Shown: positions 765-62,111 of the stretch, in pieces
How the letters are laid out: every line of letters starts with the position of its first letter
How positions within the stretch are numbered: the stretch's first letter is position 1
NCBI RefSeq assembly: GCF_014349155.1
Contig: NZ_JACSIT010000067.1
Span: forward strand, 124,001 to 188,000
DNA length: 64,000 nucleotides
Source: Neolewinella lacunae
GTDB taxonomy: Bacteria; Bacteroidota; Bacteroidia; Chitinophagales; Saprospiraceae
Direction of reading: 5' to 3'
Notes under the pieces: generated by a model
Told to the model about the DNA's origin: nothing
Databases searched by the model: none
Seen by the model: the letters and a program-made list of their open reading frames with translations, nothing else
Translations under genes and position numbers: made by a program

Positions 765-1473
765 CGCTGGTTGGGACTTTAGTGTACTGGAAATCTTCCC
801 CTGTGGCGGCGTAGCTTTCGGCGCTTGACCTACCCTGCTCTCCCCCTTTGGGGGTTGGGGGGCCAACGAACTCCCCCCTTCGGGGGGTCGGGGGGGAGCA
901 CCTGCGGCCGCGCCCTGCTGCTACTGGCTAACTGCTAATTTTCGGGCCTTGCACACTAACGCGGCAGCGGCTGTCGTTTGCCAAGCACCTTCCCCCACCC
1001 AGTTATAATTACAAGCTCGAAAATTCCGACTCATGCTGCTGCGGAGTGCCTGGCTTTTGTCTTTACTAGTCAGATCTCACTGGTCACCGTTTGGTGCTGA
1101 AACTCAAGATCCCGGGCCGCAGTGGCTACGGGGAAATCCTTGCCCGACGGGCCGGAGGCCAAGAAAAGGTTTACGGACGACGGGACAAAACCACTGCACT
1201 ACGATTCCCCACCGCTCCCTAAAGGATGGAGCGCCTTAACACCCCGAAGGAAAATTTCGTAGTACTTTTGCCCCGCTTTATCAACCAAGACCGGCCATCC
1301 GTTCACGCGGACAGCTGGCGTTTCTCCCCGGATTTGCTACAGATCCAAACATTTTGAACCTGATAACAATAGTGGGCACTGGCGACCGTTTTGCAAGCAG
1401 TACGGCGGTTCACCCTGGCCTGATATCGTTAAATTCGTAATCCCATGTCCGTACCGCGCCGGACGGTTAAACA
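765..1473. other. Intergenic region of about 700 bp
   Basis: I see no convincing gene. A 68-codon ORF at 1033-1239 has no recognisable features and is probably chance. The region holds one copy of the bipartite dispersed element (829-915). It also holds a possible Bacteroidota -7 box, TACTTTTG, at 1263-1270, about 200 bp upstream of the PorP gene. Confidence 0.6.
829..915 (-). repeat. Bipartite dispersed element, copy a (long form)
   Basis: On the minus strand the 18-bp box GGGCGCGGNCGCAGGTGC lies at 915-898 with N = C. It is followed by a C-run/G-run hairpin module and a second box, AGAGCAGGGTAGG, at 841-829. The same long form with the G/C hairpin is found at 36571-36637 and 62045-62111. 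Confidence 0.8.
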
Positions 1474-2436
1474 ATGTTTATGAAGTACGCCCGACTCTTA
1501 GGTCTGGGGATTGTATTGTCGCTGATGAGCGGCAATGGCCTCTTTGCTCAACAACTTTCGCTTTTCACCCAGTACCGGGAGAATGCCACCATTATTAACC
1601 CTGCGGCCATGGAAAGTGATTTCCTGACCTTTGGTTACAACATGTCTTTTGGGGCCAACTACCGCAGGCAGTGGGCCGGGCAGCAGAACACCCCGGAGAC
1701 GCAATCGATCCGTTTTTCCTACATCAATTCCCAGGCTTCGGGAGTGGCCCTCACCGGGGGTGGCTACCTGATGAACGACCAGACGGGGCCTACCGGGTTT
1801 ACGGGGGCTTACGGTCGGGTGGGAGCCGTCATCAGCCGGGACCCGGAAGAAGGGGGCATCAGCGTGGGGCTTTCCGCTGGCTACGTGGGCTACAGCGTGC
1901 GGGTCAGTGAGCTGGTTTTTCAGCAAAACGGCGAACCGCTCAGTGGGACGGACATCGGACAGGGGCACCCCGACATTGGCCTGGGCGTTTATGCGTACCG
2001 CTACGCCAGTGATTACAGCATGTTCTACGGCGGCATTTCGGTACCCCAGCTGCTGGGTCTGGACCTCACCTTCCAGAACGAAAACGGCCAATTCAACATC
2101 CAGCGCCTGCGGCACTTTTACGGCATGGCGGGCTGGTATTTATTTACCGGTTCTGACAGCTTCCTGGAGCTGAGCTCGTGGGTGAAGTACGTGGAAGGGG
2201 CGCCGTTGAATGCGGACATCAGCCTGCGTTACCAATTGCCCAGTGCGCCCTACATGGGTGCGGGCATCAGCACGGCGGGTAACTTCCATTTCGAGGCGGG
2301 CCTGAACATCGGGCAGTCTTACAATTCCGACACCAACTTCCGGATTGGCTATGGCTTCGACTATTCCTTCAGCAGTTTCGGCCCCAGCGTTGGTGGCACC
2401 CACGAGCTGCAAGTAGCCGTGGCGCTCATCCGCTAG
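1474..2436 (+). CDS. PorP/SprF-family type IX secretion outer-membrane protein
   Basis: Predicted outer-membrane beta-barrel of the PorP/SprF family. Members of this family help T9SS substrates with type-B C-terminal domains reach the cell surface. It has a signal peptide (residues 1 to about 25, ending near GLFAQ) and the family signature QYRENATIINPAAM near the mature N-terminus. Gly/aromatic-rich amphipathic strands run through to the C-terminus. At 320 residues the length is normal. The start could also be the Met two codons downstream (1480). The gene lies 70 bp upstream of a giant type-B cargo protein, the usual cargo/PorP pairing. Confidence 0.9.
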   Translation: MFMKYARLLGLGIVLSLMSGNGLFAQQLSLFTQYRENATIINPAAMESDFLTFGYNMSFGANYRRQWAGQQNTPETQSIRFSYINSQASGVALTGGGYLMNDQTGPTGFTGAYGRVGAVISRDPEEGGISVGLSAGYVGYSVRVSELVFQQNGEPLSGTDIGQGHPDIGLGVYAYRYASDYSMFYGGISVPQLLGLDLTFQNENGQFNIQRLRHFYGMAGWYLFTGSDSFLELSSWVKYVEGAPLNADISLRYQLPSAPYMGAGISTAGNFHFEAGLNIGQSYNSDTNFRIGYGFDYSFSSFGPSVGGTHELQVAVALIR

Positions 2437-2506
2437 CCCGGGGTAGCCGCAACGGGCTCCCACAGTAATCTCACATTCCTAGGTCTTTTTTTACAAGTTT
2501 CTACCC

Positions 2507-5500
2507 ATGCGGTACCTATTTACTCTTCTTGGCTTGGTTGCTGGCCTAACGGTCTTCAGCCAGGAGGTTTCTACCACCTTCATTCTGCCCGATGTTGCTG
2601 CCAACAATAACTCGGAGGTTTGCTTACCCATCACGGTCATCAACTTCTCGGCCGGCATTGAATTCGGGTTTGCCCTCCGGACGGAAAAGCCCGAGGACGG
2701 TGGAGCCCTTACGTTCACCCGCGTGCAGAACCTCAACCCCATGATCCCGAACTTCGACATGGGGGATTTCGACCTGACCACTTACGTCAACGATGGACTC
2801 ATCACCGTGCGTTGGAGGAATTACGGCGCCAACCAAACCTGTGTGGATGCTCCCTCCACCGTAACGCTGCCCGACAACGCCATCCTCTTCGAAGTTTGCT
2901 ACAACGTCGTAGGGGCCATCGCGACGAACCATCCGGTAACCTTTTTTGACAAGCCCGACGACGACCCCTTTGACGGGGTGGACGACTCGGTTCCCGTGAT
3001 TTTCAACAAGCGCGCCCAGTGTACGCAAGGGAACGATGCGTTTCCGGGCATCGACAACGGTTCGGTAACCATCGGCGTGAGCCCCGTGGTCTTGAACGTT
3101 GTCCCCCAGCCGGGTCTTTACCAACCGGGTGACACCTACTGTGTGGACGTAGTGGCCGAATCGGGCTTCACGGCGCTCAAGGGTTTTCAGTTTGGCCTAC
3201 AGTTTGACAATACCATCCTGCGGTCCGTTTCCGCCACGGCCAATACCATGCTTCCCCAGCATACGAACGCCAGCTACAATTTATTCGGGGGTAATTCTTT
3301 CTACGGCGTTTGGTCTCCCTTTGGGGATATTTCCGCAACACTGGCCCCGGGCACGACCATTGTCACGGCTTGTTTCGAGATCATTGGTGAGTGTAGTGAC
3401 CGCACCGATATTCAGGTTGGGCCTTCGCCGTCGAACGGCTTCCGGCCCGTGGAAGCCAATGGTACGGGACCTGGCCTGACCAGCGTCCCCGTCATCCCCG
3501 GTGGTACCCGTCTGATCGTTGACGACTGCAATCCCGCGGGTTTCGATGTGGTGGTGGATTGCCCCGATGGCCCCATCAACTTTAACGATACGGACGTTTG
3601 CGTACAAATCAAGGCCGGCACCGACTTTATGAACATGCGGGCGATGGACTACCTCATCAGCTGGGACCCCGCCGTGCTGGAGTACACGCGCATCCAGAAT
3701 CGCAACCCGGCACTTTTCATCAACGAGAACAGCGACTACGACATTACCCAAACCGGCAATGGCCGCCTGGGCTTTGACTGGGATGCTTTGACCAACCAAC
3801 AGCCTTCTCTGCCAGCGGGGGCGGTGGTTTTTGAAATTTGCTTCAACGCCATCGGCTTTGGCGGTACGAGTGCCATTTCGGTCTCCGACCTGCTCAACGA
3901 CATCCGTTCCACCACCACCACTTTCAACGGGGTGAACCCCACCAACTGCGCCATCACCATTGAGCGTCCGCAGGGAGTGGCCATTGATTTCCCCGACGAA
4001 ATCGGCTTCAGCAGCACCCAGGACGGCTGTTTTGACCTGGAGGTATCCAGTTTCAGTAACGTCAACCAATTCACTCTGTACATTTCCCTGAACGGGGCAT
4101 TGTTTGATTTCCGCAGTTTCAGTGCGGCGGTCCCCGGTGTTACCGCAGTAGAACTTGCTCCGGGACTCCTGCAACTCAACTACAACGGGCCGGTGCTCAA
4201 CCTGGCGGACGGGGCTTCTTTGGGTTCCCTCTGCTACCGCGCCGATCCGGCAGCCGACCCGGCCGACTGTGCTGAACTCGGCCTGGCCTCCTTCATCTTC
4301 AGCCAGGTCTTTACTACCGAAAGTGAAGGCAACTCCGTTCCCGTTGAATCGCTGGACGGCGAAGCCTGCGTGCTTTTCCCGAACGGATTTGGCCTCATTG
4401 TGAGCGATGCCGAAGGTTTTATCTCCGATGAAGTTTGTGTGCCCGTAAGCGTCACCCGCTTTACGGACGTCACCTCCGCTTCCATGAACTTCACTTTCGA
4501 CCCTGCCATGGTTACTTTTGACCGGGTGAACTTTTCGGGTCCGTGGACGGGCCTCACGGCGGCCAACGTAAACACGGCCAATGCAGCCATTGGCAGCATC
4601 AACATCACCTGGTCCACCACTGCTCCTGCGGGGCTCAACATCGCTAATACGGATACCGTGCAGGTATTCGAGCTTTGCTTCACCACCCTTGCCGAGGATG
4701 GTTGTATTGACATTGAGCCGGAAGACGGTGCGGACCCAACCACGACCACGGCCTCCGGTCCCGGCAGCATTGTCTACCGCGCTGGTGAATTGTGCCTGGA
4801 AGACCGCCTGGTGCTGCTCAACATTCAGGCCATCCCCGCCAGCTGTGCCGGTGCGGACGATGGCATGATCATCTTCGAAACTGCCGCACGCCCCAACAAT
4901 GAAGACATCTTCATCCGTACCGATAACCCCGTGCGTTTTGGCAACACGGGTTCGGTGGGTGGGCTCCTGCCCGGCACGCAGAGCTATACGATTTACAATG
5001 CCAGTGGAAGCGTCAGCCTGACGGGAACAATCGAGATTGGCGTTGACCCCGCCAATGCGGCAGTGGCCGTTGCCGGCGACGATACCGAACTGAGCTGTGG
5101 CCAAAACTCCTCGGCGGTCATCAACGGCCGCAACAACGTGGGCACCACTTTCCAGCTTTTCATTCTGCAACCCGACGGCAACCCCCGCTCCGTTCGTACC
5201 GGTAACGTCAGCAACGACGGCAACGTAGTAGCTTCCGTGACCGAGCCCGGCACTTACATCCTTGAAGTGACCAGTATGGCGGGCTGTAAGGCCCAGGATA
5301 CCGTCATCGTCAACAGTGCCAACCAACCCACCGCCGAAGCGGGCGAGGCCACCCTTATCCTCGATTGTACCAATGAATTCCTGACACTTTCCGGGGATGG
5401 CTCGAGTGAGGGGGCTAACGTCGGATACCTCTGGGAGCGCATCAACGGCCAAGGTGATGTTCTTGCCGAAGTAGGCACCACCCGCGACGTCAACGTCAAT

Positions 5501-8410: not shown

Positions 8411-8435
8411 ATCTCCGGGCAAGTACCCAAATGAG

Positions 8436-8478
8436 AAGCGCCGCGGTCAGTACTGATCGCGGCGCTTTTCGTTTTTTT
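8436..8478 (+). terminator. Rho-independent terminator of the giant surface gene
   Basis: A 10-bp perfect stem (AAGCGCCGCG at 8436-8445 with CGCGGCGCTT at 8458-8467) encloses a further self-complementary TCAGTACTGA and is followed by a T-run. It lies 25 bp after the stop codon, between convergent genes. Confidence 0.9.
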
Positions 8479-11523: not shown

Positions 11524-11588
11524 CGACCCTGCATGGCTGACCGGGCGCGGGCGCAGGATGCAGGGTCGGGTGGAAGGAGCGGGGGAAG
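11524..11588 (+). repeat. Bipartite dispersed element, copy b, inside a hairpin
   Basis: The box at 11543-11561 is a variant with one extra A (GGGCGCGGGCGCAGGATGC). The second box, GGAGCGGGGGAAG, ends at 11588. An 11-bp perfect inverted repeat (CGACCCTGCAT at 11524-11534 with ATGCAGGGTCG at 11558-11568) encloses the first box. The element sits between the response regulator and its kinase. Confidence 0.75.
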
Positions 11589-11604
11589 GTCCGGCTCCGG
11601 CGTA

Positions 11605-12426: not shown

Positions 12427-12469
12427 GAGCCCTGCTCTTTCACTTTCCCTGGCACCTGCGGCCGCGCCC
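12427..12469 (-). repeat. Bipartite dispersed element, copy c
   Basis: Box at 12452-12469 (minus orientation, N = C) with second box AGAGCAGGGCTC near 12439-12428. It lies 20 bp beyond the stop codon of the SET-domain gene. Confidence 0.8.
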
Positions 12470-14088: not shown

Positions 14089-14211
14089 AAGTAGGTATGG
14101 TTGGTTTTTGGGAAATATTCCGGCGTGTATCTCATAGAAAGTTCAAAGTTAGGGGAAAAATTGTGCGGGGCAAGACATTTTCTTCCCGGATGCGTTTCCT
14201 TTGCACTGCTT

Positions 14212-16017
14212 ATGACGCAATCCAAAGAAAATACTGCCCCCACGGCCCCGACCCGCTCTCAAAAAGAGAAGCTCAGTCGGTCGGTCCACATCTTCAGTTA
14301 CGTCTGGCGATACCGTTGGAAGTTTCTCCTCAGTTTCCTCACCCTGGTGCTCAGCAGCCTGGTCTTTCTGGTCATCATGCAGCTGCCGGGGGAGGCGATC
14401 AATATCCTCAACGGCGAGAACAAGTACGGACTGACGACGGAGGAAGTCTTTGGCATCCTCGCCATCCTGCTGGTGTTCCAGGCTCCGCTGAGTTTTTTGC
14501 GGGTCCGGCTCCAGGCGGAAGTCAGCGAAAGAGCCATGGCGTCCCTGCGTAAAGACCTGTACACGAAGATCTTACGGCTCAACATCCCCTTCTTCGAAAG
14601 CAACCGGGTGGGCGAGCTCACCAGCCGCATCACCAACGACATCAGCCAGATCCAGGGCGTTTTTTCGCTCACCCTGGCGGAGTTTTTGCGGCAGATCATC
14701 ATCCTCCTCGGCGGCATCACCTACATCCTGGTAACGATGCTCAAGCTGGCCCTGGTGAGCCTTTCCATCTTCCCGGTGGTCGTCATTTCGGCGATGGTCT
14801 TCGGCAGCTACGTCCGTAAAATGACCAAGGCCCGGCAGGAGCAACTCGCCGCCTCCAACGTCATCGTCGAAGAAAGCCTCCAAAGCATCAGCACCGTAAA
14901 GGCCTACACCAACGAGGCCTTCGAAATTGCCCGCTACGGCAAGAGCATCGACGAAACGGTGCGCATCTCCCTGAAAACGGCCAGCGCCCGGGGCATTTTC
15001 GCCGCCTTTATCGTCACGGTCATGTTCGGTGCCCTTTTCTACATCATCTACCGGGCCGTGTTGTTGGTGCAAACGGGCGATTTGCCCGTCGGCGACCTCT
15101 TCAGCTTCGTCATCTTCACCGCCCTCATCGGCGGATCCATCGCCAGCCTGGGGAATTTCTACACCGAGATCGTCTCCGCCCTCGGTGCTTCCGACCGCGT
15201 GATCGACATCCTGCAAAGCAAAGAGACGGAGCCCACGGCCAAGCAACAGCCCGCCGCGGCCCCGGCCCTGGAAGGCCTCATCCGCTACGAAAACGTGCAC
15301 TTCCACTACCCTACGCGCCCCGATGTGAAGGTGCTCAAAGGAATTGACCTGACGATCCAACCCGGCGAAAAAGTAGCCATCGTGGGCGCCAGCGGCAGCG
15401 GAAAATCGACGATCATGAAGCTCCTGCTCCGCTTCTACCCCATTGCCGAGGGCCGCATTACGGTGGACGGCCAGGACATCGAAGATTACCCACTGGAGGG
15501 TTTTCGCAAAAACCTCGCCCTTGTCCCCCAGGAAGTACTGCTCTTCGGGGGTAGTATCCGGGAGAACATTGCCTACGGAGACCTGACGGCTACCGACGAA
15601 GCCATCCGCGAAGCCGCCCGGCAGGCCAATGCCCTCGATTTCATCGAGGGTTTCCCCGAAGGCCTCGATACGGTGGTGGGCGACCGCGGCATCCAGCTCA
15701 GTGGCGGACAGCGGCAGCGCGTGGCCATCGCCCGGGCCATCCTCAAAAATCCGTCCATTCTCCTGCTCGACGAAGCCACCAGCAGCCTCGACGCCGAAAG
15801 CGAGCGCGTGGTACAGGAGGCCCTGAACCGCCTGATGGTGGGCCGCACCAGCATCATCATCGCCCACCGCCTGGCCACGATCCGGGAGGTCGACCGCATC
15901 TACGTCCTCGAAAACGGCACCATCGTCGAAACCGGCACCCACGCCGAGTTGAGCGAGCGGCCCGATGGGGCGTATTCTGCACTGGCGCGGCTCCAATTTC
16001 AGGCCATTCCCGACTGA
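14212..16017 (+). CDS. ABC exporter, fused permease and ATPase (MsbA/HlyB-like half transporter)
   Basis: A 601-residue half-transporter that dimerises in the inner membrane to export lipids, peptides or drugs. Six TM helices lie in the first ~330 residues. The ATPase follows with Walker A GASGSGKST (about 391), Q-loop LVPQE, signature LSGGQRQR (about 496), Walker B ILLLDEATSSLD and H-loop IIIAHRLAT. The start MTQSKENTAP is preferred over an upstream Met, because a promoter-like TTCCTTTG lies just before it at 14196-14203. The stop overlaps the murB start (TGATG), so the two are translationally coupled. Substrate is not predictable. Confidence 0.93.
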   Translation: MTQSKENTAPTAPTRSQKEKLSRSVHIFSYVWRYRWKFLLSFLTLVLSSLVFLVIMQLPGEAINILNGENKYGLTTEEVFGILAILLVFQAPLSFLRVRLQAEVSERAMASLRKDLYTKILRLNIPFFESNRVGELTSRITNDISQIQGVFSLTLAEFLRQIIILLGGITYILVTMLKLALVSLSIFPVVVISAMVFGSYVRKMTKARQEQLAASNVIVEESLQSISTVKAYTNEAFEIARYGKSIDETVRISLKTASARGIFAAFIVTVMFGALFYIIYRAVLLVQTGDLPVGDLFSFVIFTALIGGSIASLGNFYTEIVSALGASDRVIDILQSKETEPTAKQQPAAAPALEGLIRYENVHFHYPTRPDVKVLKGIDLTIQPGEKVAIVGASGSGKSTIMKLLLRFYPIAEGRITVDGQDIEDYPLEGFRKNLALVPQEVLLFGGSIRENIAYGDLTATDEAIREAARQANALDFIEGFPEGLDTVVGDRGIQLSGGQRQRVAIARAILKNPSILLLDEATSSLDAESERVVQEALNRLMVGRTSIIIAHRLATIREVDRIYVLENGTIVETGTHAELSERPDGAYSALARLQFQAIPD

Positions 16018-17072
16018 TGCGCAGCAACGTTTCCCTCACTTCCTTCAACACCTTTGGCCTGCCCGCCGTGGCGGAGCGCTACCTGCCGCTGACGGATCCG
16101 CAGCAGCTTCAGGACCCCATTTTTCAGCGTCCGCCGGCCCTGGTGCTGGGCGGGGGCAGCAACCTGCTCTTGCTGGAGCATTTATCTGGCCTGACGGTGC
16201 ACGTCCAGCTGGGAGGCGTGCAGGTGCTGGGCGCGGCCGCAGGTGCAGGGGCCGGGACGAGGAGCGAGGACAGTCCGCACTACTACCAGCCCGAAGTCAT
16301 TTTGCACGTCGGGGCGGGCGTGGATTGGAACCAACTGGTGCGCTACACCCTCGACCAGGGCTGGTACGGCCTCGAAAACCTGATTTTGATTCCGGGGACG
16401 GTCGGCGCAGCCCCCGTGCAGAACATCGGTGCCTACGGCGCGGAAGTGGCCGAGCGCATCGTGGCCGTCCACGTCTGGGAATACGGCGTGGGCCCGCGGG
16501 TGCTCCGCCCGGAAGAATGTCATTTCGGCTACCGGGACAGCCGTTTCAAGCAGGAGCCCGACCGCTTCCTGATCACGGCCGTAGACCTGCGCCTCAACGG
16601 GGAGCACCGCCTGAAGACCGGCTACGGAGACATCCAGCGTGAACTGGAACGCCTCGGCAAAACGGACCCTCGCCCGGCCGACGTAGCCCTGGCCGTCACC
16701 AACATCCGCCGCAGCAAACTGCCCGACTGGTTTTTCCTCGGCAACAGCGGGAGTTTTTTCAAGAACCCGGTGGTTCCCCTGTCCGTCGCCACCAGCCTCC
16801 AGCAGCGCTACCCGGAATTGCCCGTTTACCCCGTTGATGGGCAGTCCGCCAAGCTCGCCGCCGGTTGGCTCATCGACCAGGCCGACCTGAAGGGTGTGCG
16901 CCACGGGGCGGTGGGCAGCTACGCGCGGCAGGCGCTTGTCTTGGTCAACCACGGCGGGGCTACCGGACGGGAGGTGCTGGCTTTCAGTGCTTTTGTCCGG
17001 CAAACCGTGTTTGAGAAATTCGGGGTGGAGCTGGAGCGGGAGGTGCAGTTGGTGGGGAGTAGTCCTGGCTAA
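16017..17072 (+). CDS. murB: UDP-N-acetylenolpyruvoylglucosamine reductase
   Basis: FAD/NADPH enzyme making UDP-N-acetylmuramate for peptidoglycan. Motifs are NTFGLPA, LGGGSNLLL, HVGAGVDWNQLV, GLENLILIPGTVGAAPVQNIGAYG, the active-site GNSGSFFKNP, and C-terminal AAGWLIDQADLKG...GAVGSYARQALVLVN. The length of 351 is normal for the longer E. coli-like type. Oddly, the loop between the first and second FAD motifs contains a complete dispersed element (16229-16273), translated in frame as LGAAAGAGAGTRSEDS. The start codon overlaps the ABC transporter stop. Confidence 0.95.
   Translation: MRSNVSLTSFNTFGLPAVAERYLPLTDPQQLQDPIFQRPPALVLGGGSNLLLLEHLSGLTVHVQLGGVQVLGAAAGAGAGTRSEDSPHYYQPEVILHVGAGVDWNQLVRYTLDQGWYGLENLILIPGTVGAAPVQNIGAYGAEVAERIVAVHVWEYGVGPRVLRPEECHFGYRDSRFKQEPDRFLITAVDLRLNGEHRLKTGYGDIQRELERLGKTDPRPADVALAVTNIRRSKLPDWFFLGNSGSFFKNPVVPLSVATSLQQRYPELPVYPVDGQSAKLAAGWLIDQADLKGVRHGAVGSYARQALVLVNHGGATGREVLAFSAFVRQTVFEKFGVELEREVQLVGSSPG
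16229..16273 (+). repeat. Bipartite dispersed element, copy d, inside murB
   Basis: Box GGGCGCGGCCGCAGGTGC at 16229-16246 and second box GGAGCGAGGACAG ending at 16273. Both lie in the murB coding sequence and keep its frame. Confidence 0.8.
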
Positions 17073-18010: not shown

Positions 18011-18028
18011 GCACCTGCGTCCGCGCCC
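18011..18028 (-). repeat. Bipartite dispersed element, copy e (first box only)
   Basis: 18-bp box in minus orientation with N = A. No clear second box follows. It is the only feature seen in the 300-bp gap between the LysE-type gene and phosphoglucomutase. Confidence 0.75.
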
Positions 18029-30156: not shown

Positions 30157-30210
30157 GGCGGACATTTCAGTTACAAAGCCTAGCAAACGGCAATAGCTTA
30201 CCCTAATATT

Positions 30211-30489
30211 TGCGCGGACGCAGGTGCAGGGGAAGGTCAACTGCGCCCCCGGCCCTGCAATGGGCTAATGCGCCCTCCCTTCCCAAAACTGCGGGACGAG
30301 CGCAGCTCCGCAACGGTCCCCCGGCACGAAAAGTACTTTCGAACATATTCGAATGTTGGTGCGGTTTGCCTGCGCCGCCCCACCCCATCCGGAGTACTTT
30401 CGAACATGTTCGAATGTTGGGGAAAATGGCCACACTAGCCCTCCCCCCCTTTGCTCTTACCGACCTTCCCAGCACCTGCGCCCGCGCCC
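30211..30489. mobile_element. MITE-like composite bounded by two inverted dispersed elements (copies f and g)
   Basis: Left box at 30211-30227 (plus, N = A; first bases degraded) and right box at 30472-30489 (minus, N = G), with the second-box sequence of the right copy at 30449-30471. The boxes form 17-18 bp inverted ends about 280 bp apart. The interior has no gene. It contains two copies of a 28-bp direct repeat (30332-30359, 30393-30420) centred on a TTCGAACATRTTCGAA palindrome. The whole unit fills the gap between two genes. Confidence 0.65.
30338..30414. promoter_or_regulatory. Two copies of the palindrome TTCGAACATRTTCGAA
   Basis: 30338-30353 (one mismatch from perfect) and 30399-30414 (perfect 16-bp palindrome), 61 bp apart. 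The geometry is that of a dimeric repressor operator pair, but there is no adjacent promoter that I can identify. Confidence 0.5.
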
Positions 30490-36518: not shown

Positions 36519-36637
36519 GGGCGCGAACGCAGGTGCAGAGGAGGTTGGGAGGAGCCGGGCAAGCGCCCCCCTACCCTTGCTCCTTGTCCAAACTCCCCCT
36601 TTCGGGGGGCCGGGGGGGAGCACCTGCGACCGCGCCC
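36519..36637. mobile_element. Composite of two inverted dispersed elements (copies h and i)
   Basis: Plus-strand copy 36519-36563 (N = A; second box GGAGCCGGGCAAG) faces minus-strand copy 36637-36571 (N = T; long form with the C/G hairpin; second box GGAGCAAGGGTAG). The outer 18-bp boxes form terminal inverted repeats 119 bp apart end to end, with almost nothing between the two copies. Confidence 0.65.
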
Positions 36638-40374: not shown

Positions 40375-40745
40375 TGGCGGGGCTGCGCGTGGGCATACTG
40401 CTGTTGTTGTGCTGCACTGTTGCGGCTTTGCCGGGGCAGTTGCGGGTGCAGCCGGTGGCCGATCCAGTGCTTTCGAACGGCTTTATGTCTTTTTGGGGCG
40501 CGGCCGCAGGTGCCGGAATAAGTCTTAGGAGCCAGGCAAGTCTGAATACACCGCCGCTCCGCTTACTGAGTTTGGAAAGCACCGTCAGCCAGTCTGCGCC
40601 AGCGTTCGACTTTACCCGCACCGCTCCCCACCTCGCCTTTTTCTGCCGGCTGGAAATCAACGAAAAAGCTGGAGCCATCATTCCCGCTAAGTTTCGCCTC
40701 GGTGGCCATACGCACTGGCAAGACGCCCTCTGGCGGCGGGAGTGA
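40374..40745 (+). CDS. Small secreted hypothetical protein containing an in-frame dispersed element
   Basis: A 123-residue protein with a signal peptide (MAGLRVGILLLLCCTVAALPGQ). The C-terminal block PHLAFFCRLEINEKAGAIIPAKFRLGGHTHWQDALW matches a motif common in small Bacteroidota hypotheticals (FFCRLE...P.RFRLG...Y...LE), so the gene is probably real. Residues WGAAAGAGISLRSQASL in the middle are encoded by a dispersed element (40496-40540). Translationally coupled to the VWA gene. Function is unknown. Confidence 0.7.
   Translation: MAGLRVGILLLLCCTVAALPGQLRVQPVADPVLSNGFMSFWGAAAGAGISLRSQASLNTPPLRLLSLESTVSQSAPAFDFTRTAPHLAFFCRLEINEKAGAIIPAKFRLGGHTHWQDALWRRE
40496..40540 (+). repeat. Bipartite dispersed element, copy j, inside the small secreted gene
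   Basis: Box GGGCGCGGCCGCAGGTGC at 40496-40513 and second box GGAGCCAGGCAAG ending at 40540, in the same reading frame as the murB copy (GAAAGAG). Confidence 0.8.
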
Positions 40746-45612: not shown

Positions 45613-45659
45613 GGGCGCGGCCGCAGGTGCCGCAGTTGGGACTTAGGAGCAAGGGAAGG
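45613..45659 (+). repeat. Bipartite dispersed element, copy k
   Basis: Box at 45613-45630 (N = C) and second box GGAGCAAGGGAAG ending at 45659. It starts 32 bp after the stop of the helical-repeat gene and lies in the leader of the GNAT gene. Confidence 0.85.
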
Positions 45660-49491: not shown

Positions 49492-49529
49492 TTGCCCTGG
49501 TCTTTCACCCGGCACCTGCGTCCGCGCCC
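49492..49529 (-). repeat. Bipartite dispersed element, copy l
   Basis: Box at 49512-49529 in minus orientation (N = A) with a weak second box, AGACCAGGGCAA. It lies 25 bp beyond the stop of the ornithine aminotransferase gene. Confidence 0.75.
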
Positions 49530-54375: not shown

Positions 54376-54434
54376 GGGGAAATTATTTGAATTCAGAAAA
54401 GGTGTCAGGACCGTAGTTTGTTGTACGCACCCCG

Positions 54435-54442
54435 CAAATATA
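54435..54442 (-). promoter_or_regulatory. -7 promoter box for the TlpA-type gene
   Basis: TATATTTG on the minus strand, 59 bp upstream of the chosen start. Because it lies inside the longer ORF, it argues for the shorter start. Confidence 0.55.
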
Positions 54443-54500
54443 CACACATTCACTTTTAAACGACACTTGTAGTTTCGTATTTTCCACGCTCCTTCAAAAG

Positions 54501-54547
54501 TGGCGCGGTCGCAGGTGCAAGGGAAGGTCGTAAGGAGCAGGGTAAGG
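54501..54547 (+). repeat. Bipartite dispersed element, copy m
   Basis: Box at 54501-54518 (first G replaced by T; N = T) and second box AAGGAGCAGGGTAAGG ending at 54547, 16 bp from the purL stop. Confidence 0.85.
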
Positions 54548-54563
54548 CCGTACCCGGGCCAAT

Positions 54564-56804: not shown

Positions 56805-56829
56805 GGGGTGCTGTATTTGGGGTAAGGGG

Positions 56830-56837
56830 CAAAGATA
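56830..56837 (-). promoter_or_regulatory. -7 promoter box for purL
   Basis: TATCTTTG on the minus strand matches TAnnTTTG and lies 25 bp from the start codon. Confidence 0.6.
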
Positions 56838-56888
56838 TAAGCGCCGGGCGACTTTTACAGGCTTAGCGGCAAGTATCGGCTGCCAGCC

Positions 56889-56934
56889 TAAGCTTTCTCC
56901 TATAAGACTTCCCCTGCATCCTGCGCCCGCGCCC
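56889..56934 (-). repeat. Bipartite dispersed element, copy n
   Basis: Box at 56916-56934 is the 19-bp variant with the extra base, as in copy b. The second box is degraded (GGAGAAAGCTTAG). It begins 2 bp after the stop of the adjoining lipoprotein gene. Confidence 0.75.
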
Positions 56935-56936
56935 CA

Positions 56937-57596
56937 TCAATCTTCGTAATAACTGAAACCGACGGAAAGGGGCCCAATGGCCAGTTCATAATCCCCCGGC
57001 TTGGTGATCCATTGCTCGTTGGGCCCGCGGGAGGCGAGGTCCTGGGGAGAGATGGTGAAACTGATCACTTTGCTTTCCCCGGCGGCGAGGCCTACCGGTT
57101 GGAAACTGCGCAGGCGGGGGGCACTGGCTTTAGGGTCCGCATTTTCCTCCCTGCTGAACAGCAGGACGGAGTGTTGGCCCGGCGCGCCACCCTTGTTCGT
57201 GACCATTACCGAGATGGTGAGGCTATCGCCTTTTTCCAGGCCCGGGGCGCTGAGCAGCAGGTTTTGGTAGACAAAATCCGGGTTGTGGAGGCCATCGCCA
57301 AACGGAGCGAGGGGGTTTACAGCGTTGGGCAGGGTCAGGTCATAGAGCTTGCCCTGGAGCAGCAGATCGATGACGGCCTGGGGTGTTGGACGGTCTTTCT
57401 CTTCCTGGGCCAGCCGGGCCATTTCGCTGTCCACGAAGGCCCGTTCGGCGGGGGTGAGGGAAGAGGAGTCGGACAACTCGGAGTGTGGCGCAGCGTTGGC
57501 CTGCCGCCCCAGTTCCGCTACGGGCAACTTTGAGGCGTGGGCGGATGCGGGGGTGTTGCAGGAAAGGAAGCTGAGCAGAAGCAGTGTTGTGATCAT
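56937..57596 (-). CDS. Putative lipoprotein with fibronectin-III-like domain
   Basis: A 219-residue protein with signal sequence and lipobox (LLSFLSC, Cys at 13). An acidic spacer with TPAERAFVDSEMARLAQEEKDRPTPQAVIDLLLQGKLYDL is followed by an Fn3-like domain of the type found at the C-terminus of GH3 glucosidases: VTNKGGAPGQHSVLLFSREE...LRSFQPVGLAAGESKVISFTISPQDL...PGDYELAIGPLS. No catalytic domain is present. It may bind carbohydrate or act as a structural module. Confidence 0.75.
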   Translation of the reverse strand: MITTLLLLSFLSCNTPASAHASKLPVAELGRQANAAPHSELSDSSSLTPAERAFVDSEMARLAQEEKDRPTPQAVIDLLLQGKLYDLTLPNAVNPLAPFGDGLHNPDFVYQNLLLSAPGLEKGDSLTISVMVTNKGGAPGQHSVLLFSREENADPKASAPRLRSFQPVGLAAGESKVISFTISPQDLASRGPNEQWITKPGDYELAIGPLSVGFSYYED

Positions 57597-57674
57597 GGAG
57601 AGACGAAACTTAGGTTTACAGAATGGCCTAAATTTAATTCATTTGCCGCAGCTTTCTCCATCCATCCGCCGAAA

Positions 57675-58325
57675 TTACAGAAGCCCCTGGACGAGACTGA
57701 CCAGGCCGGAAATCAGCATTTCAATGCCGATGCTCATTACCAGGAAGCCCATGATGCGGCTCAGGGCGGAAAGGCCCGTACGCCCCAGCAGGCGGAACAG
57801 TACGGGGGCAAACTGCAGCACCACCCAGATGAGGAGGGCCATGGTCAGGATCACCGCCACAATGAGGCCGCGGCTCACCCATTCGCTCTGGGCGGCGAAC
57901 AGGCCGATGAGGAGCGAAATACTGCCCGGACCGGAAAGCATCGGCATGGCCATGGGCGTAAAACTGATGTCTTCGTTGTGCTGCACCTCGTCAGTCATTT
58001 CCGGGCTCATGCGCCGTTTTTCGAACTGGTTATTGAGCAAACCGAAGCCGCTGTTGACGATGATGAGTCCGCCGGCAATACGCAATGCGTTGAGGCTGAT
58101 GCCAAAGAAATCGAGGATGAAAGAGCCGGCAAAGAAGAAGGTAATCAGGATGACGGAAAACCACAGGGAGGTCTTGCGCGCCATCACCGCCCGGTTGGTA
58201 GCCGGCATGTGGGAAGTGAGGGTGAGATACATCGGGACGGCGCCGAGGGGATTGACCACCGAAAAGAGGGAGCCGAGGGTGGCGAGAAAAAAAGTAAGCA
58301 CTGGCGTAAATTCGAGTTGGGGCAA
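57675..58325 (-). CDS. MarC-family (UPF0056) integral membrane protein
   Basis: A 216-residue protein with six hydrophobic segments. The signature FSVVNPLGAVPMYLTLT is at the N-terminus, and a mirrored PMAMPMLSGPGSISLLIG halfway through reflects the internal repeat of the family. GLxVMSIGIEMLISG lies near the end. The family was once linked to antibiotic resistance, but its transport substrate is unknown. It is divergent from the Sua5-type gene, with the start codons about 160 bp apart. Confidence 0.92.
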   Translation of the reverse strand: MPQLEFTPVLTFFLATLGSLFSVVNPLGAVPMYLTLTSHMPATNRAVMARKTSLWFSVILITFFFAGSFILDFFGISLNALRIAGGLIIVNSGFGLLNNQFEKRRMSPEMTDEVQHNEDISFTPMAMPMLSGPGSISLLIGLFAAQSEWVSRGLIVAVILTMALLIWVVLQFAPVLFRLLGRTGLSALSRIMGFLVMSIGIEMLISGLVSLVQGLL

Positions 58326-58481
58326 AATGGGTGTCCGGCGGCTAACTCACCACTGGGCAATCAGGGAAAACGCGCGGTGCAAAGACAAGTTGCAACGCGG
58401 AGCGACTGCACCAAAATATCGCAAAAAATCCGGACTTTTGCGGCGCGTCCGCCGCTTTTGGCGACGCCACACCCCATCGCT

Positions 58482-59459
58482 TTGCCCGCCCCGATTACTA
58501 CCGACATTGCTGCTGCCGCCGAAGTGCTCCGCGCCGGAGGCCTGGTGGCCATCCCGACGGAAACGGTCTACGGCCTGGCCGGCAATGCCCTGAACGAAGC
58601 GGCGGTCGCCAAGATTTTTGCGGCCAAGAACCGCCCCAGCTTCGATCCGCTGATCCTGCACCAGTCCAGCGCCGAGCGGATCTTTGCTTTTACAACGGCC
58701 CCTTCACCTGCGGCCGCGCAACTCGCTGCCCACTGTTGGCCCGGGCCGCTGACCCTGGTGCTCAACAAACAAGCCGTGGTGCCCGACTTGGTATCGGCGG
58801 GCCTGGAGACGGTAGCCGTACGGGTTCCGCAACACCCCGTGGCGCGGCAGTTGCTGGAGCTGCTCGATTTCCCCCTGGCCGCCCCCAGCGCCAACCCCTT
58901 TGGCTACGTGAGCCCCACTACCGCCCAGCACGTAGCCGACCAACTCGGCGACCGCATCGACCTGATTCTCGACGGCGGTCCCTGCCAGATCGGCCTGGAA
59001 AGTACCATCGTCGGCTTCCCGGAGGGCGTCCCCACGGTGTACCGCAAAGGAGGCCTGCCCGTAGAAAGCCTGGAACAACTCCTGGGCCACCCCCTGGCGA
59101 TCAATACCCACAGCAGCAGCCACCCTACGGCGCCGGGCATGCTCAGCCGCCATTATTCTCCGGGCGTGCCGTTGGACCTTTGGGCCGACCTGAAGCAAGT
59201 GGATGAGTTGCCTCCCGACAGCGCCGTAATTGGCTTTGGAATGGGCGGAACGCACTACCGCCGCGACGAAAATCGCCACCTGGACTTTTATGATCTTTCC
59301 CCCACGGGAAGTCTGGAGGAAGCGGCCCAGCAGCTCTTTTCCGTCCTGCGCCAAGTAGCCAAGCAAGACTACCTGCGGGCCGCCGCCGTCTTGGTGCCCG
59401 AACGGGGGCTAGGCCGCGCAATCAACGACCGGCTACGCCGCGCGGCAGTGGAGGAGTAA
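58482..59459 (+). CDS. L-threonylcarbamoyladenylate synthase (Sua5/TsaC type)
   Basis: Makes threonylcarbamoyl-AMP for the t6A37 modification of tRNA. The YrdC-like domain (about 1-200) has GGLVAIPTETVYGLAGNAL, KNRPSFDPLILH, HCWPGPLTLVL, FPLAAPSANPFGYVSPT, and GLESTIVGF. A C-terminal Sua5 extension follows from TAPGMLSRHYSPG. No ATG precedes the domain, so the start is probably TTG at 58482 (or TTG 58458). The longer ORF upstream is antisense to marC. A partial dispersed element (58705-58719) is translated in frame as SPAAAQ. Confidence 0.88.
   Translation: MPAPITTDIAAAAEVLRAGGLVAIPTETVYGLAGNALNEAAVAKIFAAKNRPSFDPLILHQSSAERIFAFTTAPSPAAAQLAAHCWPGPLTLVLNKQAVVPDLVSAGLETVAVRVPQHPVARQLLELLDFPLAAPSANPFGYVSPTTAQHVADQLGDRIDLILDGGPCQIGLESTIVGFPEGVPTVYRKGGLPVESLEQLLGHPLAINTHSSSHPTAPGMLSRHYSPGVPLDLWADLKQVDELPPDSAVIGFGMGGTHYRRDENRHLDFYDLSPTGSLEEAAQQLFSVLRQVAKQDYLRAAAVLVPERGLGRAINDRLRRAAVEE
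58705..58719 (-). repeat. Partial bipartite-element box, copy o, inside the Sua5-type gene
   Basis: Fifteen bases match the minus-strand box (CACCTGCGGCCGCGC, N = C on the minus strand). The outermost C run has been replaced by AAC. No clear second box. Confidence 0.5.
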
Positions 59460-59632
59460 GGAAGATAAGCGGAACGGACGCGCGCTGGCCGCATACGAAA
59501 AGTACCGACAATTGCTAACTTTGTCCGCCGCAAATGCGTTGCCAACGGGAACGACACTGCGGCTGAACACCGGATCAGCCGATCGTTTACTTGCCGACTG
59601 CCAACCAATTTTTGTAGGACCAATCCACACTC

Positions 59633-60022
59633 ATGCGCTTTCCTCTTGCCCTGTGCTTCACCAGTTTATTTTTGGCCTCCTGCGGTGGTGATGTCAACCC
59701 CGAGGCGGCCGCAACCATTGAAGGGCACTGGGAACTTTCCCGTGCCCTGCGCAACAACCTCGAAACGGGGATGCTCGAAGACCTGACTTTTACCTTCCGG
59801 CCCGACGGTACCTTTGAAACCAATCTGATGGGCAACGAAAGCCCTGGCACCTACGAATTCACGGGTACCGAACTGGTCACCGCTGGCGTCAGTTTACCGC
59901 TGACCTACAATGTCCGGGAGCTGACGGACAGCACACTGCACCTGCGCAGCACCTACCAGAGCTACCAGTTTGACTTCGAGATGAAACGTGCGGCGGCCAA
60001 CGGCCACTCCGACGAATTGTAA
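59633..60022 (+). CDS. Small lipocalin-like lipoprotein
   Basis: A 129-residue lipoprotein with lipobox LFLASC (Cys at 17). The mature part has IEGHWELSRALRNNLETGMLEDLTFTFRPDGTFETNLMG...GTYEFTGTELV, a pattern of small one-domain lipocalin-like proteins in Bacteroidota. Ligand and role are unknown. It follows the Sua5-type gene by about 170 bp and converges with the ACP-like gene. Confidence 0.75.
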   Translation: MRFPLALCFTSLFLASCGGDVNPEAAATIEGHWELSRALRNNLETGMLEDLTFTFRPDGTFETNLMGNESPGTYEFTGTELVTAGVSLPLTYNVRELTDSTLHLRSTYQSYQFDFEMKRAAANGHSDEL

Positions 60023-60068
60023 TCGGTTGGATGGGCATTTGGTCAGTAATCAAATGCCCGAACAATAA

Positions 60069-60329
60069 CTAGCGGAGGAAAAAGTGCTGGATGTCTCCCA
60101 CGGTCTCGATCTGCGCCATTTCCTCTTCGGTGAGGTAATACTCCATGCGGCTCTCGAGGGAGGCAATGAGCAGCTTTACGTCCATTTGATCAAGGAACAG
60201 ATCGTCCTGGAGGCGGGTAAAGGTGTGCAGGCGTTCACCGGGGATGCGTAATTCATTGCTGAGGTTCGTCATCAGGTCGGCGGAGCGGGTAACAAAGCCC
60301 GTGGCCGGGTAAGCGGTTAAGTTGGTCAT
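60069..60329 (-). CDS. Acyl-carrier-protein-like protein lacking the phosphopantetheine serine
   Basis: An 86-residue protein. Its C-terminal two-thirds align with ACP helices II-IV: LQDDLFLDQMDVKLLIASLESRMEYYLTEEEMAQIETVGDIQHFF corresponds to the ACP pattern DL..DSLD...L...LE..F...I..EE...I.TV.D....I. The carrier serine of DSLD is Gln here (DQMD), so it could not be loaded in the usual way. The start MTNLTAYP is preferred to a Met 45 codons upstream, whose extension is low-complexity and Cys/Pro-rich. Role unknown. Confidence 0.75.
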   Translation of the reverse strand: MTNLTAYPATGFVTRSADLMTNLSNELRIPGERLHTFTRLQDDLFLDQMDVKLLIASLESRMEYYLTEEEMAQIETVGDIQHFFLR

Positions 60330-60565
60330 TTGGGTACAAAAGATTGGTTGGGGCCAATGGCAACTGCCCGGCGAAGGGGCGGGAATGTGCTGCCGGGCGT
60401 TGATTCCATTAGCGAATATTCGCTGCAAAGAACGTTGTGAGACCGCCAAGCGTTGCCTCGACAAAAAAAATTAGCCGCTTTTTTTTTACAGGCCCGGCTG
60501 GCCCGGAAACCCAAACTTAAGCCCGCCCGCCCGCACGCAGGGTACGCGATGTGCCCCCCCGGGCT

Positions 60566-60573
60566 TACCTTTG
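60566..60573 (+). promoter_or_regulatory. -7 promoter box for the LOG-family gene
   Basis: Perfect TACCTTTG 19 bp upstream of the ATG at 60593. Confidence 0.65.
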
Positions 60574-60592
60574 CCCTCCCAAAAAAAATAGC

Positions 60593-61312
60593 ATGAGTGA
60601 GCACGCAGGACTAAACCGCCACGCCCCCCGCCACTGGCACCAGAATTTTACCGGCGAAAACAGCTGGACCATGTTCAAGGTCATCAGTGAATTCGTGGAA
60701 GGCTACGAGGTAATGAACCGGGTAGGCCCCTGTGTTTCCATCTTCGGCTCGGCCCGGACCAAGCCCGACCACAAGTACTACCAGCTGGCCACCGAAATCG
60801 GGCAGCTCCTCGTCCGCGAGGGCTACGGCGTCATCACCGGCGGCGGGCCCGGCATTATGGAAGCGGGCAACCGCGGCGCCCACCTGGAAAAAGGAGCCAG
60901 CATCGGGCTCAACATCGATCTGCCCTTCGAAACCAGCAGTAATCCTTACGTAGACCTCGACAAAAACATCGATTTTCGCTACTTCTTCGTCCGCAAAGTC
61001 ATGTTCGTAAAATACGCCCAGGCCTTCGTTTGCTGCCCGGGCGGCTTCGGGACGATGGACGAACTTTTTGAAGTCCTCACCCTCATCCAGACCCGCAAAA
61101 TCAATAAGGTTCCCGTCATCCTGGTCGGGACAGAATACTGGAGCGGACTGCGCGACTGGATCTTCGAGACCATGTCGGAAAAGGAGGCCACCATCAGCCC
61201 GCAGGACATGGACCTGATCCCCATCGTCGACACGGCTGACGCCGTTTTGGAAATCATCCGTGACTTCTACGACCGGCAGGGGCACACGCTTTCGCCGAAT
61301 TTTAAGCTCTAG
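60593..61312 (+). CDS. LOG-family (TIGR00730) Rossmann-fold nucleotide hydrolase
   Basis: A 239-residue protein of the family that removes ribose-5-phosphate from nucleoside monophosphates, named for cytokinin activation in plants. It contains VSIFGSARTKPDHKYY, GYGVITGGGPGIMEAGNRGAHLEKGASIGLNI, and the hallmark CCPGGFGTMDELFEVLTLIQTRK (PGGxGTxxE). The N-terminal ~40 residues (RHWHQNFTGENSWTMFKVISEFVEGYEVM) are a common extension in Bacteroidota. Start chosen by the -7 box. Confidence 0.9.
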   Translation: MSEHAGLNRHAPRHWHQNFTGENSWTMFKVISEFVEGYEVMNRVGPCVSIFGSARTKPDHKYYQLATEIGQLLVREGYGVITGGGPGIMEAGNRGAHLEKGASIGLNIDLPFETSSNPYVDLDKNIDFRYFFVRKVMFVKYAQAFVCCPGGFGTMDELFEVLTLIQTRKINKVPVILVGTEYWSGLRDWIFETMSEKEATISPQDMDLIPIVDTADAVLEIIRDFYDRQGHTLSPNFKL

Positions 61313-61473
61313 TGGGCCAAACGGTAAATATCGTTACATTAAGTTGCCGCTATTTTTTGGTATGGCAAGGCGGCGAAACCGGAGTACAGCCAAAGCTACA
61401 TGAGGATTTCGCTAACGCAGCCAGAGCAAAAAAGAGCAAGGCTTGGATGTAATAGTATTTACCGGTTGGCCCA

Positions 61474-62007
61474 CTAGCCATTCCCCGTTCCCTTGAAGTG
61501 GTCTTCTTTGTATTTGAAGAGGACGTTGAAGGAGGTCAGCGAGCCGTAAATCCGGGTGATGTACTGCTGAAGGTTCACTTTTTCTTCGTCGCTGAGGTTG
61601 CTGGCGTTGATACGTTGTTCCATCACGCGGAGGCGATCACGGACCATGACGATTTTGTGAAAAAAGTCTTCGATGGGCATTTCTTTGGTCGCCAGGCCGG
61701 CCTCCCCGGGTTGGAGGATGAGGGTACCGTCGATCCAGCGGTCGCCGAGCTTGGTCGTTTCGTCGATGCCGTTATAGGTGCGTAAAATCCGGATGAGGGC
61801 CTGCTCGGCCTCGTTGAAGGAAGCCACTTCTTCGGCTTCCAGGGCTTCGATGATTTCCCAGTCGCGGTAGTCGCGGCCGACGGTTTTGAGGCCGTAGGTC
61901 ATAAAAGTAACGTCGTAGGCGGCCTTATAGAGTTTGACGATCACGCCGTCGCCGAAGGCGGGGTGGCGGACCCGGCTGCCGGCGCCGAGGGTAATGGGTT
62001 GGTTCAT
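61474..62007 (-). CDS. Hypothetical protein with Tudor/CarD-like N-terminus
   Basis: A 177-residue soluble protein. The first ~50 residues (ITLGAGSRVRHPAFGDGVIVKLYKAAYDVTFMTYGLKTVGRDYRDWEII) look like the small SH3/Tudor-like barrels found in CarD or at the C-terminus of UvrD-type helicases ('G..V.H..fG.G.V'). The rest is helical with no known motif. It could bind RNA polymerase or nucleic acid, but that is inference. A -7-like box TACTTTCG is at 62037-62030. Confidence 0.65.
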   Translation of the reverse strand: MNQPITLGAGSRVRHPAFGDGVIVKLYKAAYDVTFMTYGLKTVGRDYRDWEIIEALEAEEVASFNEAEQALIRILRTYNGIDETTKLGDRWIDGTLILQPGEAGLATKEMPIEDFFHKIVMVRDRLRVMEQRINASNLSDEEKVNLQQYITRIYGSLTSFNVLFKYKEDHFKGTGNG

Positions 62008-62044
62008 GAGGGGATTAAATTAGCTGGCGCGAAAGTAAGCAAAA

Positions 62045-62111
62045 GGGCGCGGACGCAGGTGCTCCCCCCCGGCCCCCCGAAGGGGGGAGTGAGGACAAAG
62101 AGCAAGGGAAG
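62045..62111 (+). repeat. Bipartite dispersed element, copy p (long form)
   Basis: Box at 62045-62062 (N = A), then the C-run/G-run hairpin CCCCCCGAAGGGGGG, then second box AGAGCAAGGGAAG ending at 62111. It lies between the divergent Tudor-like and ChaN-like genes. Confidence 0.85.

What the first reader, a model, noticed from the sequence alone, without database searches (positions are those of the whole stretch)
829..62111. A bipartite dispersed element with one freely variable base, about 16 copies in 64 kb
The box GGGCGCGGNCGCAGGTGC is near-invariant at 17 positions while the central base is A, C, G or T. Copies are at 898-915, 11543-11561, 12452-12469, 16229-16246, 18011-18028, 30211-30227, 30472-30489, 36519-36536, 36620-36637, 40496-40513, 45613-45630, 49512-49529, 54501-54518, 56916-56934, 58705-58719 (partial) and 62045-62062. 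Most have a directional second box RGAGCARGGNAAG downstream, and three have a C-run/G-run hairpin module between. Both strands are used. Invariance around one variable base suggests recent spread, protein recognition with a spacer base, or selection on an RNA. I know of no named family matching it.
Basis: seen in the sequence. Interest (0 to 1): 0.78.

Follow-up and report, generated by a model that had tools for sequence, protein, structure and literature searches.

The report
Strand-spaced genome watermark in Neolewinella bacteria
A marine bacterium carries well over a thousand copies of a short DNA word, relatives in its genus use their own versions of it, and copies on the same DNA strand keep a few kilobases apart, which looks like a signal by which cells recognise their own kind's DNA, though this has not been tested in the laboratory.

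Summary
The repeat is real: 16 boxes in the window (0.64 expected) and 1362 in the 5.8-Mb genome (up to 2 mismatches) against 17 for the reversed control. It belongs to Lewinella/Neolewinella, where several relatives have their own abundant "dialect". The core is sharp (153 of 222 copies perfect, no excess at 3 or more mismatches). At some orthologous places inside genes each species writes its own form, on either strand. This resembles DNA uptake sequences of Neisseria and Haemophilus. Weaker than for those: 16 of 20 in-gene sites have a gap-free homologue without the box, but gaps around boxes are common, so some copies may have come by insertion.

One property is new: copies in the same orientation avoid each other within about 4 kb (25 pairs seen, 110 expected) while opposite copies are independent (119 against 110). 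A second 398-kb set repeats this, and ten other species pooled show it within 3 kb. USS in two genomes and Chi in E. coli, tested alike, do not. Type IV pilins were not detected (0 of 21 genomes); ComEC was (21 of 21).

Best reading: a strand-polar, uptake-type self-DNA signal maintained by biased DNA exchange. Function is inferred, not shown.

The parts
898..915 (-). box, perfect
871..897 (-). C-run/G-run hairpin directly 3' of the box
829..842 (-). second box, after two nested hairpins
11543..11560 (+). weak box (3 mismatches)
12452..12469 (-). box, perfect
16229..16246 (+). box, perfect, inside the murB gene (16017-17072), coding within LGAAAGA in a loop that is short in ten relatives
16260..16273 (+). 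second (purine) box of the murB copy
14101..16017 (+). ABC transporter gene (MsbA type, name from recall); orthologues in six sampled relatives carry a box in its linker, this copy does not
18011..18028 (-). box, perfect
30210..30227 (+). box, 2 mismatches
30472..30489 (-). box, perfect
36519..36536 (+). box, 1 mismatch
36550..36563 (+). second box
36620..36637 (-). box, perfect; convergent with 36519
36593..36619 (-). C-run/G-run hairpin
36571..36584 (-). second box
40496..40513 (+). box, perfect
40527..40540 (+). second box
45613..45630 (+). box, perfect
45645..45658 (+). second box
49512..49529 (-). box, perfect
54501..54518 (+). box, 1 mismatch
54533..54546 (+). second box
56917..56934 (-). 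weak box (3 mismatches)
58704..58721 (-). weak box (3 mismatches)
62045..62062 (+). box, perfect
62063..62089 (+). C-run/G-run hairpin
62098..62111 (+). second box

Best explanation
The box plus its purine-rich tail (about 45 nt) is a self-recognition signal for DNA exchange, of the uptake-sequence type. A species-specific receptor recognises it on incoming DNA; fragments that carry it enter or recombine more often, so the signal accumulates and is kept uniform by this bias (molecular drive), and it drifts into dialects as receptors change. Unlike USS it appears to be read with strand polarity: one copy serves one strand, or one direction, over roughly 3-4 kb, so a second copy in the same orientation nearby brings no further gain, while opposite copies are independent. 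SHOWN: abundance, dialects, own-dialect copies at some orthologous sites, sharp core, strand-specific spacing. INFERRED: that the process is DNA uptake or transfer, that a receptor exists, and the direction of action.
For: 1362 copies, control 17. Genus-specific: 7 to 1657 matches in 20 congeners, 0-10 in 39 genomes of other genera of the family and order. Dialects, whole genomes, exact: one form 350 in G001 and at most 45 in each of the other 20; another 191 in G006, at most 39 elsewhere; a third 95 in G010, none in the other 20; a fourth 663 in G013, at most 111 elsewhere; forward and reverse nearly equal in each of these four genomes. Core sharp: 83/27/16 copies at 0/1/2 mismatches, then control level (23 against 29 at 3). 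Orthologous sites in each species' own form (within one mismatch): murB and an ABC-transporter linker in six species, two antisense and four sense. A small gene where the box of G005 and G002 lies over codons that G010 also has. Strand-specific spacing: discovery set same/opposite neighbours 31/90 (p 7.5e-8); replication set 24/71 (p 1.5e-6); all 861 kb 55/161 (p 3e-13); same-strand pairs under 4 kb 25 against 110 expected, opposite 119 against 110; ten other species 43/114 (p 1.3e-8), same-strand pairs under 3 kb 8 against 53.5, opposite 57. In-gene copies within 100 nt of a start are antisense in 24 of 28 (nine species), like the reported bias of reverse-complement USS to gene 5' ends in most Pasteurellaceae (PMC2346458). 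Some phage contigs carry the box, as Pasteurellaceae phages carry USS (PMC6776037). ComEC 21 of 21.
Against: No uptake experiment for this genus was found in my searches. Type IV pilins are not detected (0 of 21); PF00437 matched 20 of 21 genomes, 11 just over its cut-off, but each over at most 84 of 370 positions, so the machinery is unknown. ComEC proves little (10 of 14 control genomes have it). Strand-specific spacing is not seen for USS, so the analogy is incomplete. Gaps: of 34 alignments to a scored homologue without a box, 12 have a gap in the box segment and 23 within 12 residues of it, against 10 and 49 of 1240 random segments; for USS 115 of 474 alignments had gaps, mostly outside the core (PMC1626085). 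Some of the 16 gap-free sites are weak evidence, because the murB partners share the longer loop. A hairpin module fixed at one position of the element in G000 looks like copying or targeted insertion. Near gene starts orientation is not random, so gene context matters somewhat. The three most divergent dialects showed no clear alternation (G001 4/6, G006 7/7, G010 10/11; small samples). After the recount I lowered this reading from 0.55 to 0.5.
Confidence: 0.5

Rival explanations
1. Binding site of a chromosomal protein with directional action (Chi-like recombination control, segregation, replication or chromosome folding), kept by ordinary selection, one per strand per several kb.
For: A saturating, strand-specific reach of a few kb is what a directional translocase signal would give. 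Dialects could follow changes of the protein.
Against: E. coli Chi, tested alike on 400 kb (103 sites), clusters on the same strand instead of repelling. Strands are balanced within contiguous stretches (25/22, 14/15, 13/12, 8/6, 6/5), unlike replication-oriented signals. The sharp core (about 28 bits) and many simultaneous dialect changes are hard to explain by selection site by site (inference).
Confidence: 0.25
2. A MITE/REP-type mobile element whose box was later kept by function or trans-mobilisation.
For: A recognisable 45-nt unit with a looser tail; the murB loop is a net insertion shared by one group of species; frequent gaps around boxes; a uniform hairpin module in 46 of 222 copies.
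Against: No decayed copies; orthologous in-gene sites in each species' own form and in either orientation; 16 of 20 sites have a gap-free homologue without the box; same-strand repulsion over kilobases. Target duplications were not tested systematically and close strains were not available.
Confidence: 0.13
3. Directional packaging signal of a phage-like gene transfer particle: packaging starts at a box and runs one way for a headful of several kb, and transfer of that DNA drives the box.
For: A one-way reach of a few kb fits a small headful (inference). Some phage contigs carry boxes.
Against: No particle genes were looked for genome-wide; no direct evidence. Phages carrying the signal are also expected under uptake (PMC6776037).
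Confidence: 0.1
4. Transcription terminator, promoter or structured RNA.
For: 95 of 126 copies in G000 are intergenic; hairpins in a minority; near called gene starts intergenic copies mostly point against the gene (21 of 23 within 70 nt in G000, 19 of 25 in eight other species).
Against: In G000 the four gene arrangements are used about equally (28, 22, 22, 19 of 91); 31 copies lie inside genes, 15 sense and 16 antisense; no Rfam match.
Confidence: 0.02

Closest known systems
Uptake signal sequence (USS) of Pasteurellaceae
   Same: Hundreds or more dispersed copies, both strands, many perfect matches and few near-misses, dialects, reverse-complement bias to gene starts in most genomes, presence in phages (PMC1626085, PMC2346458, PMC6776037). 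A weak flanking tail is recalled for USS.
   Different: Box about twice as long; purine-rich tail; more gaps at in-gene sites (against PMC1626085); strand-specific spacing not seen for USS in two genomes (neighbours 95 same, 111 opposite); no type IV pilin found here.
DNA uptake sequence (DUS) of Neisseriaceae
   Same: Species-specific dialects, strong conservation within a species, spacing close to conversion-fragment length (PMC3630211, PMC2397512).
   Different: Shorter; bound by ComP (a pilin, by recall); no pilins found here. Strand-specific spacing of DUS was not tested.
Chi sites
   Same: Orientation-dependent, about one per few kb, G-rich (recall).
   Different: Short (recall); E. coli Chi clusters on a strand and is uneven between strands in the stretch tested (62/41); here strands are balanced and same-strand sites repel.
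REP/MITE repeats
   Same: Dispersed, many copies, some with hairpins; some copies here may be insertions.
   Different: Not palindromic as a whole, no decayed copies, dialects at orthologous sites.

Membership tests
DNA uptake sequence (DUS/USS) | Strong genome-wide over-representation with a sharp consensus | tested here: met
DNA uptake sequence (DUS/USS) | Dialects among related species | tested here: met
DNA uptake sequence (DUS/USS) | Sites arise in place, not by insertion | tested here: inconclusive
   22 of 34 alignments gap-free in the box segment, 16 of 20 sites with a gap-free homologue, but gap rates far above random segments and above those reported for USS
DNA uptake sequence (DUS/USS) | Sequence increases DNA uptake or transformation | not testable with these tools
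   needs a competent strain
DNA uptake sequence (DUS/USS) | Type IV pilus machinery with a pilin receptor | tested here: not met
   PF07963 in 0 of 21 genomes; only short PF00437 matches. A diverged machinery would be missed
USS | Spacing indifferent to strand (as measured here on USS) | tested here: not met
Chi site | Orientation bias along the chromosome and no same-strand repulsion (as measured on E. coli) | tested here: not met
MITE/REP | Decayed copies besides fresh ones | tested here: not met
MITE/REP | Inserted unit with empty sites or target duplications | tested here: inconclusive
   target duplications not tested
Known RNA family | Rfam match at the gathering score | tested here: not met

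The most novel reading that the evidence does not exclude
A strand-polar self-DNA signal: each DNA strand of the chromosome is tiled independently by its own evenly spaced array of one-directional transfer signals with a reach of 3-4 kb, read by a machinery without type IV pili, and maintained by molecular drive in species dialects. This would be a new kind of sexual-isolation system, outside the two families known to have uptake sequences.
Probability: 0.33. Interest if true: 0.93.

Novelty: new variant of a known kind. Interest (0 to 1): 0.8.

Why it matters
The papers I saw describe uptake sequences in two families, Pasteurellaceae and Neisseriaceae, both using type IV pili. A third, independent case in Bacteroidota without detectable pilins would show that self-recognition watermarks evolve repeatedly and by other machinery. 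The strand-specific spacing gives a direct, testable clue to mechanism (which strand, which direction, how far). It could also mark host and recently acquired DNA in a marine genus and its phages.

Tried and rejected
RNA, promoter or terminator reading: rejected for G000 by gene-context counts and Rfam, with the orientation bias near gene starts left as a caveat. Transposon reading: lowered, not excluded. Chi and USS as exact equivalents: controls (USS sites show mild avoidance below about 600 nt in both orientations, apart from close inverted pairs). Directional base composition around copies: little beyond 1-1.5 kb; of four upstream/downstream tests one (AT skew) gave p 0.01. Other genera of the family: samples of 13-80 kb from seven genomes showed no comparable word by word counts (profiles were run on four of them); an eighth (G024, 1.5 kb) was too small. 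G010's motif resembles a promoter element (recall) and 15 of 16 intergenic copies have a gene reading away on the 5' side, so its homology to the box is only suggested. For G004 and G020 I found no clear own dialect. In the spacing test I used ten other species and left out G001, G006, G010 (tested apart: 4/6, 7/7, 10/11), G004, G020, and those with little or no sequence (G003, G007, G009, G016, G018). Gap tests: one search was redundant and loose; (58 alignments, 17 gaps; 33 sites, 27 with a gap-free homologue) counted duplicated loci and partners whose dialect was not scored (G004, G020); one search replaces both and is less favourable, so I lowered the best reading from 0.55 to 0.5 and the novel case from 0.35 to 0.33, and raised the mobile-element rival from 0.08 to 0.13. 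Phage tails: an impression of about 30 tailed copies did not hold; one search gives 14 of 46 stretches of GC 0.50-0.60 with 9 or more of 14 tail matches (random 8.4%). Target-site duplications were not tested. Literature: PMC2346458 part 1 of 3 read; PMC7965970 section 16 and passages; PMC3630211, PMC1626085, PMC7811141, PMC2397512 and PMC6776037 as passages; the others only as listings. No paper on this repeat was found in the ten searches.
Full report
What is there. The window holds 16 boxes GGGCGCGGNCGCAGGTGC (up to 3 mismatches; expected 0.64; ten perfect). The whole genome (G000, 5.8 Mb, 154 contigs) holds 688 forward and 674 reverse matches with up to 2 mismatches, and 8+9 for the pattern read backwards. 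In 463 kb examined closely the counts at 0, 1 and 2 mismatches are 83, 27 and 16; at 3 and 4 they are 23 and 87 against 29 and 120 in the control, so there is no cloud of decayed copies. A purine-rich tail follows, ending in a second box AGGAGCARGGNAAG, most often 12-14 nt downstream. It is looser, and weaker inside genes than between them (23% against 43% of copies with 11 or more of 14 matches; random sequence 0.4%).

Who has it. Of 20 congeners, 17 have 222-1657 matches to the G000 form, G006 has 64, and G001 and G010 are at background (7 and 9); the reversed control gives 5-21 in 18 of the 20 and 46 and 62 in the other two. In 39 genomes of other genera of the family and order there are 0-10.

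Dialects. The genomes that lack the G000 form have their own. Word counts without a seed gave GGCGGAGCGCAGG in G001, GCGCCGGAGCGC in G006 and CAAAGTAGCAATG in G010. Profile refinement, with the threshold set so that the reversed profile gives about one hit, gave related but distinct consensuses at 15-43 sites per 100 kb in G000, G005, G002, G014, G013, G019, G011, G017, G015, G008, G012, G001, G006 and G010, and nothing clear in G004 and G020. Exact whole-genome counts: KGCGGCGGAGCGCAGG 176+174 in G001, at most 45 elsewhere; GGGCGCCGGRGCGCRGG 98+93 in G006, at most 39 elsewhere; GGNTANCAAAGTAGCAATG 50+45 in G010, none in the other 20; GGGCGCTGNCGCRGGTGC 329+334 in G013, at most 111 elsewhere. 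Whether the G010 motif is homologous is uncertain.

Orthologous sites. In murB a loop is longer in G000, G018, G002, G003, G014, G007, G005, G013 and G019 than in ten congeners (G010 has a different longer loop; G009 had no match). The box there reads GGGCGCGGCCGC in G000, GGGCGGGGCCGC in G005, AGGCGCTGCCGC in G013 and AGGCGCGGACGCGGG in G019, forms found in their own species. In an ABC-transporter linker six sampled species hold a box near the same spot, two antisense and four sense, each within one mismatch of its own form. In a small gene (TPR-like by recall) the box of G005 and G002 lies over codons that G010 also has, without a gap. Counting in-gene boxes by strict patterns against homologues whose own dialect was scored and absent: 34 alignments, 12 with a gap in the box segment and 23 with a gap within 12 residues; 20 sites, 16 with at least one gap-free homologue. 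Random segments of the same pairs: 10 and 49 of 1240. Redfield and colleagues applied this kind of test to USS and found gaps in 115 of 474 alignments, mostly outside the core (PMC1626085, passages). So in-place origin is shown for some sites, and the whole set is more gap-ridden than USS: boxes sit in indel-prone segments, or some came by insertion.

Position. In G000, 31 of 126 copies are in genes (15 sense, 16 antisense) and 91 intergenic copies with neighbours on both sides use the four gene arrangements 28, 22, 22 and 19 times. Orientation is not random near gene starts. Over nine species, copies inside genes within 100 nt of the start are 24 antisense and 4 sense, elsewhere 30 and 46; intergenic copies within 70 nt upstream of a called start point against the gene in 21 of 23 (G000) and 19 of 25 (eight others). 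My gene starts are predicted, so some of these may be inside genes. Read antisense the box encodes APAxAP, which a signal peptide may tolerate (inference). Van Passel reported that reverse-complement USS favour gene 5' ends in most Pasteurellaceae (PMC2346458).

Strand-specific spacing. Neighbouring copies alternate in orientation: in the window 13 of 15 steps; in the 463-kb set 90 opposite, 31 same. Same-orientation pairs are nearly absent at short range and opposite pairs are at expectation. In a second 398-kb set of the same genome, fetched after the first result: same-orientation 0/5.4, 0/5.8, 1/11.5, 3/11.4, 4/11.4 (observed/expected in bins up to 0.5, 1, 2, 3, 4 kb), opposite 12/5.4, 4/5.8, 11/11.5, 11/11.4, 7/11.4; neighbours 24 same, 71 opposite. 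Over all 861 kb (223 copies) neighbours are 55 same, 161 opposite (p 3e-13), and same-strand spacing has mean 7.6 kb and coefficient of variation 0.46 (random 0.96 +- 0.06). Ten other species with their own dialects, 760 kb and 167 copies: 43 same, 114 opposite (p 1.3e-8); same-strand pairs under 3 kb 8 against 53.5 expected and opposite 57, while at 3-4 kb same-strand pairs are at expectation (19/17.5). Chi in 400 kb of E. coli K-12 (103 sites): same-strand pairs clustered. So each strand carries its own even array, and the acting process reads one strand or one direction and saturates within a few kb.

Mechanism. A process that rewards a copy only if no same-oriented copy lies within a few kb, keeps the core uniform, and changes dialect across hundreds of sites is best explained by biased DNA exchange, as for uptake sequences. 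Polarity suggests that one strand, or DNA on one side of the site, is what is taken. ComEC is present in 21 of 21 genomes (also in 10 of 14 control genomes); type IV pilin signatures in none; T2SSE matches are short and weak, 11 of 21 just over the cut-off. A member of the same phylum, Riemerella columbina, prefers its own DNA in transformation; its authors listed only A/T-rich frequent words and left their function open (PMC7965970 section 16). Direct evidence for uptake in Neolewinella is lacking.

Phages and a nested module. Exact boxes occur in 83 stretches of viral contigs, 80 of them held. Many may be chance in GC-rich DNA. Of 46 stretches with GC 0.50-0.60, 14 have a tail with 9 or more of 14 matches (random 8.4%); stretches are not independent, since several come from one contig or from related phages. 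Three such loci encode terminase and head protease (L226), tape measure (L248) and tail fibre (L223) proteins. In G000, 46 of 222 copies carry a C-run/G-run hairpin, 38 of them starting at the second base after the box; 52 of 57 such double-run hairpins in 861 kb lie within 70 nt 3' of a box, and 1 of 32 hairpin copies is in a gene against 30 of 93 others. None were seen in samples of eight congeners.

Verdict. A real, genus-wide, dialect-forming signal that works like an uptake sequence but does not meet two tested features of the known ones (pilins; spacing indifferent to strand) and is inconclusive on a third (in-place origin). New variant of a known kind, possibly a new kind.

Noticed in passing
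window 871-897, 36593-36619, 62063-62089; 46 of 222 G000 copies: A C-run/G-run hairpin module sits right after the box (38 of 46 at one position), 52 of 57 such hairpins in 861 kb are at a box, hardly any in genes, and none in samples of eight congeners: a nested module that targets or travels with the box.
   Followed up: partly
L223, L226, L248 and other viral loci: Some tailed-phage contigs carry the box, part of them with a purine tail; if these infect Neolewinella, host and dialect could be read from it.
   Followed up: partly
window about 18.1-30.2 kb: The largest box-free gap contains an AT-rich island (GC 0.34 at 20-24 kb) with a possible STAND NTPase (below the Pfam cut-off) and, nearby, a 2OG-Fe(II) oxygenase: perhaps recently acquired DNA.
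   Followed up: no
G000 whole genome, 26 places: A minority of copies of the G006-type form coexist with the main form, also 39 in G002 and 33 in G009: a possible second dialect in one genome.
   Followed up: no
first 100 nt of genes, nine species: Antisense copies gather at gene starts (24 of 28), perhaps coding for part of signal peptides (APAxAP).
   Followed up: partly
G010, 120-kb sample: Its abundant motif TTTTGGCTAnCAAAGTAGCAATG mostly has a gene reading away on its 5' side and resembles a Bacteroidota promoter element (recall); relation to the box unclear.
   Followed up: partly
G000, G002 and G019 samples: Other short words (ACTATGAACT, TAGTCGGTAG, CTACCGCCTA), apparently tandem, are also strongly over-represented.
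   Followed up: no
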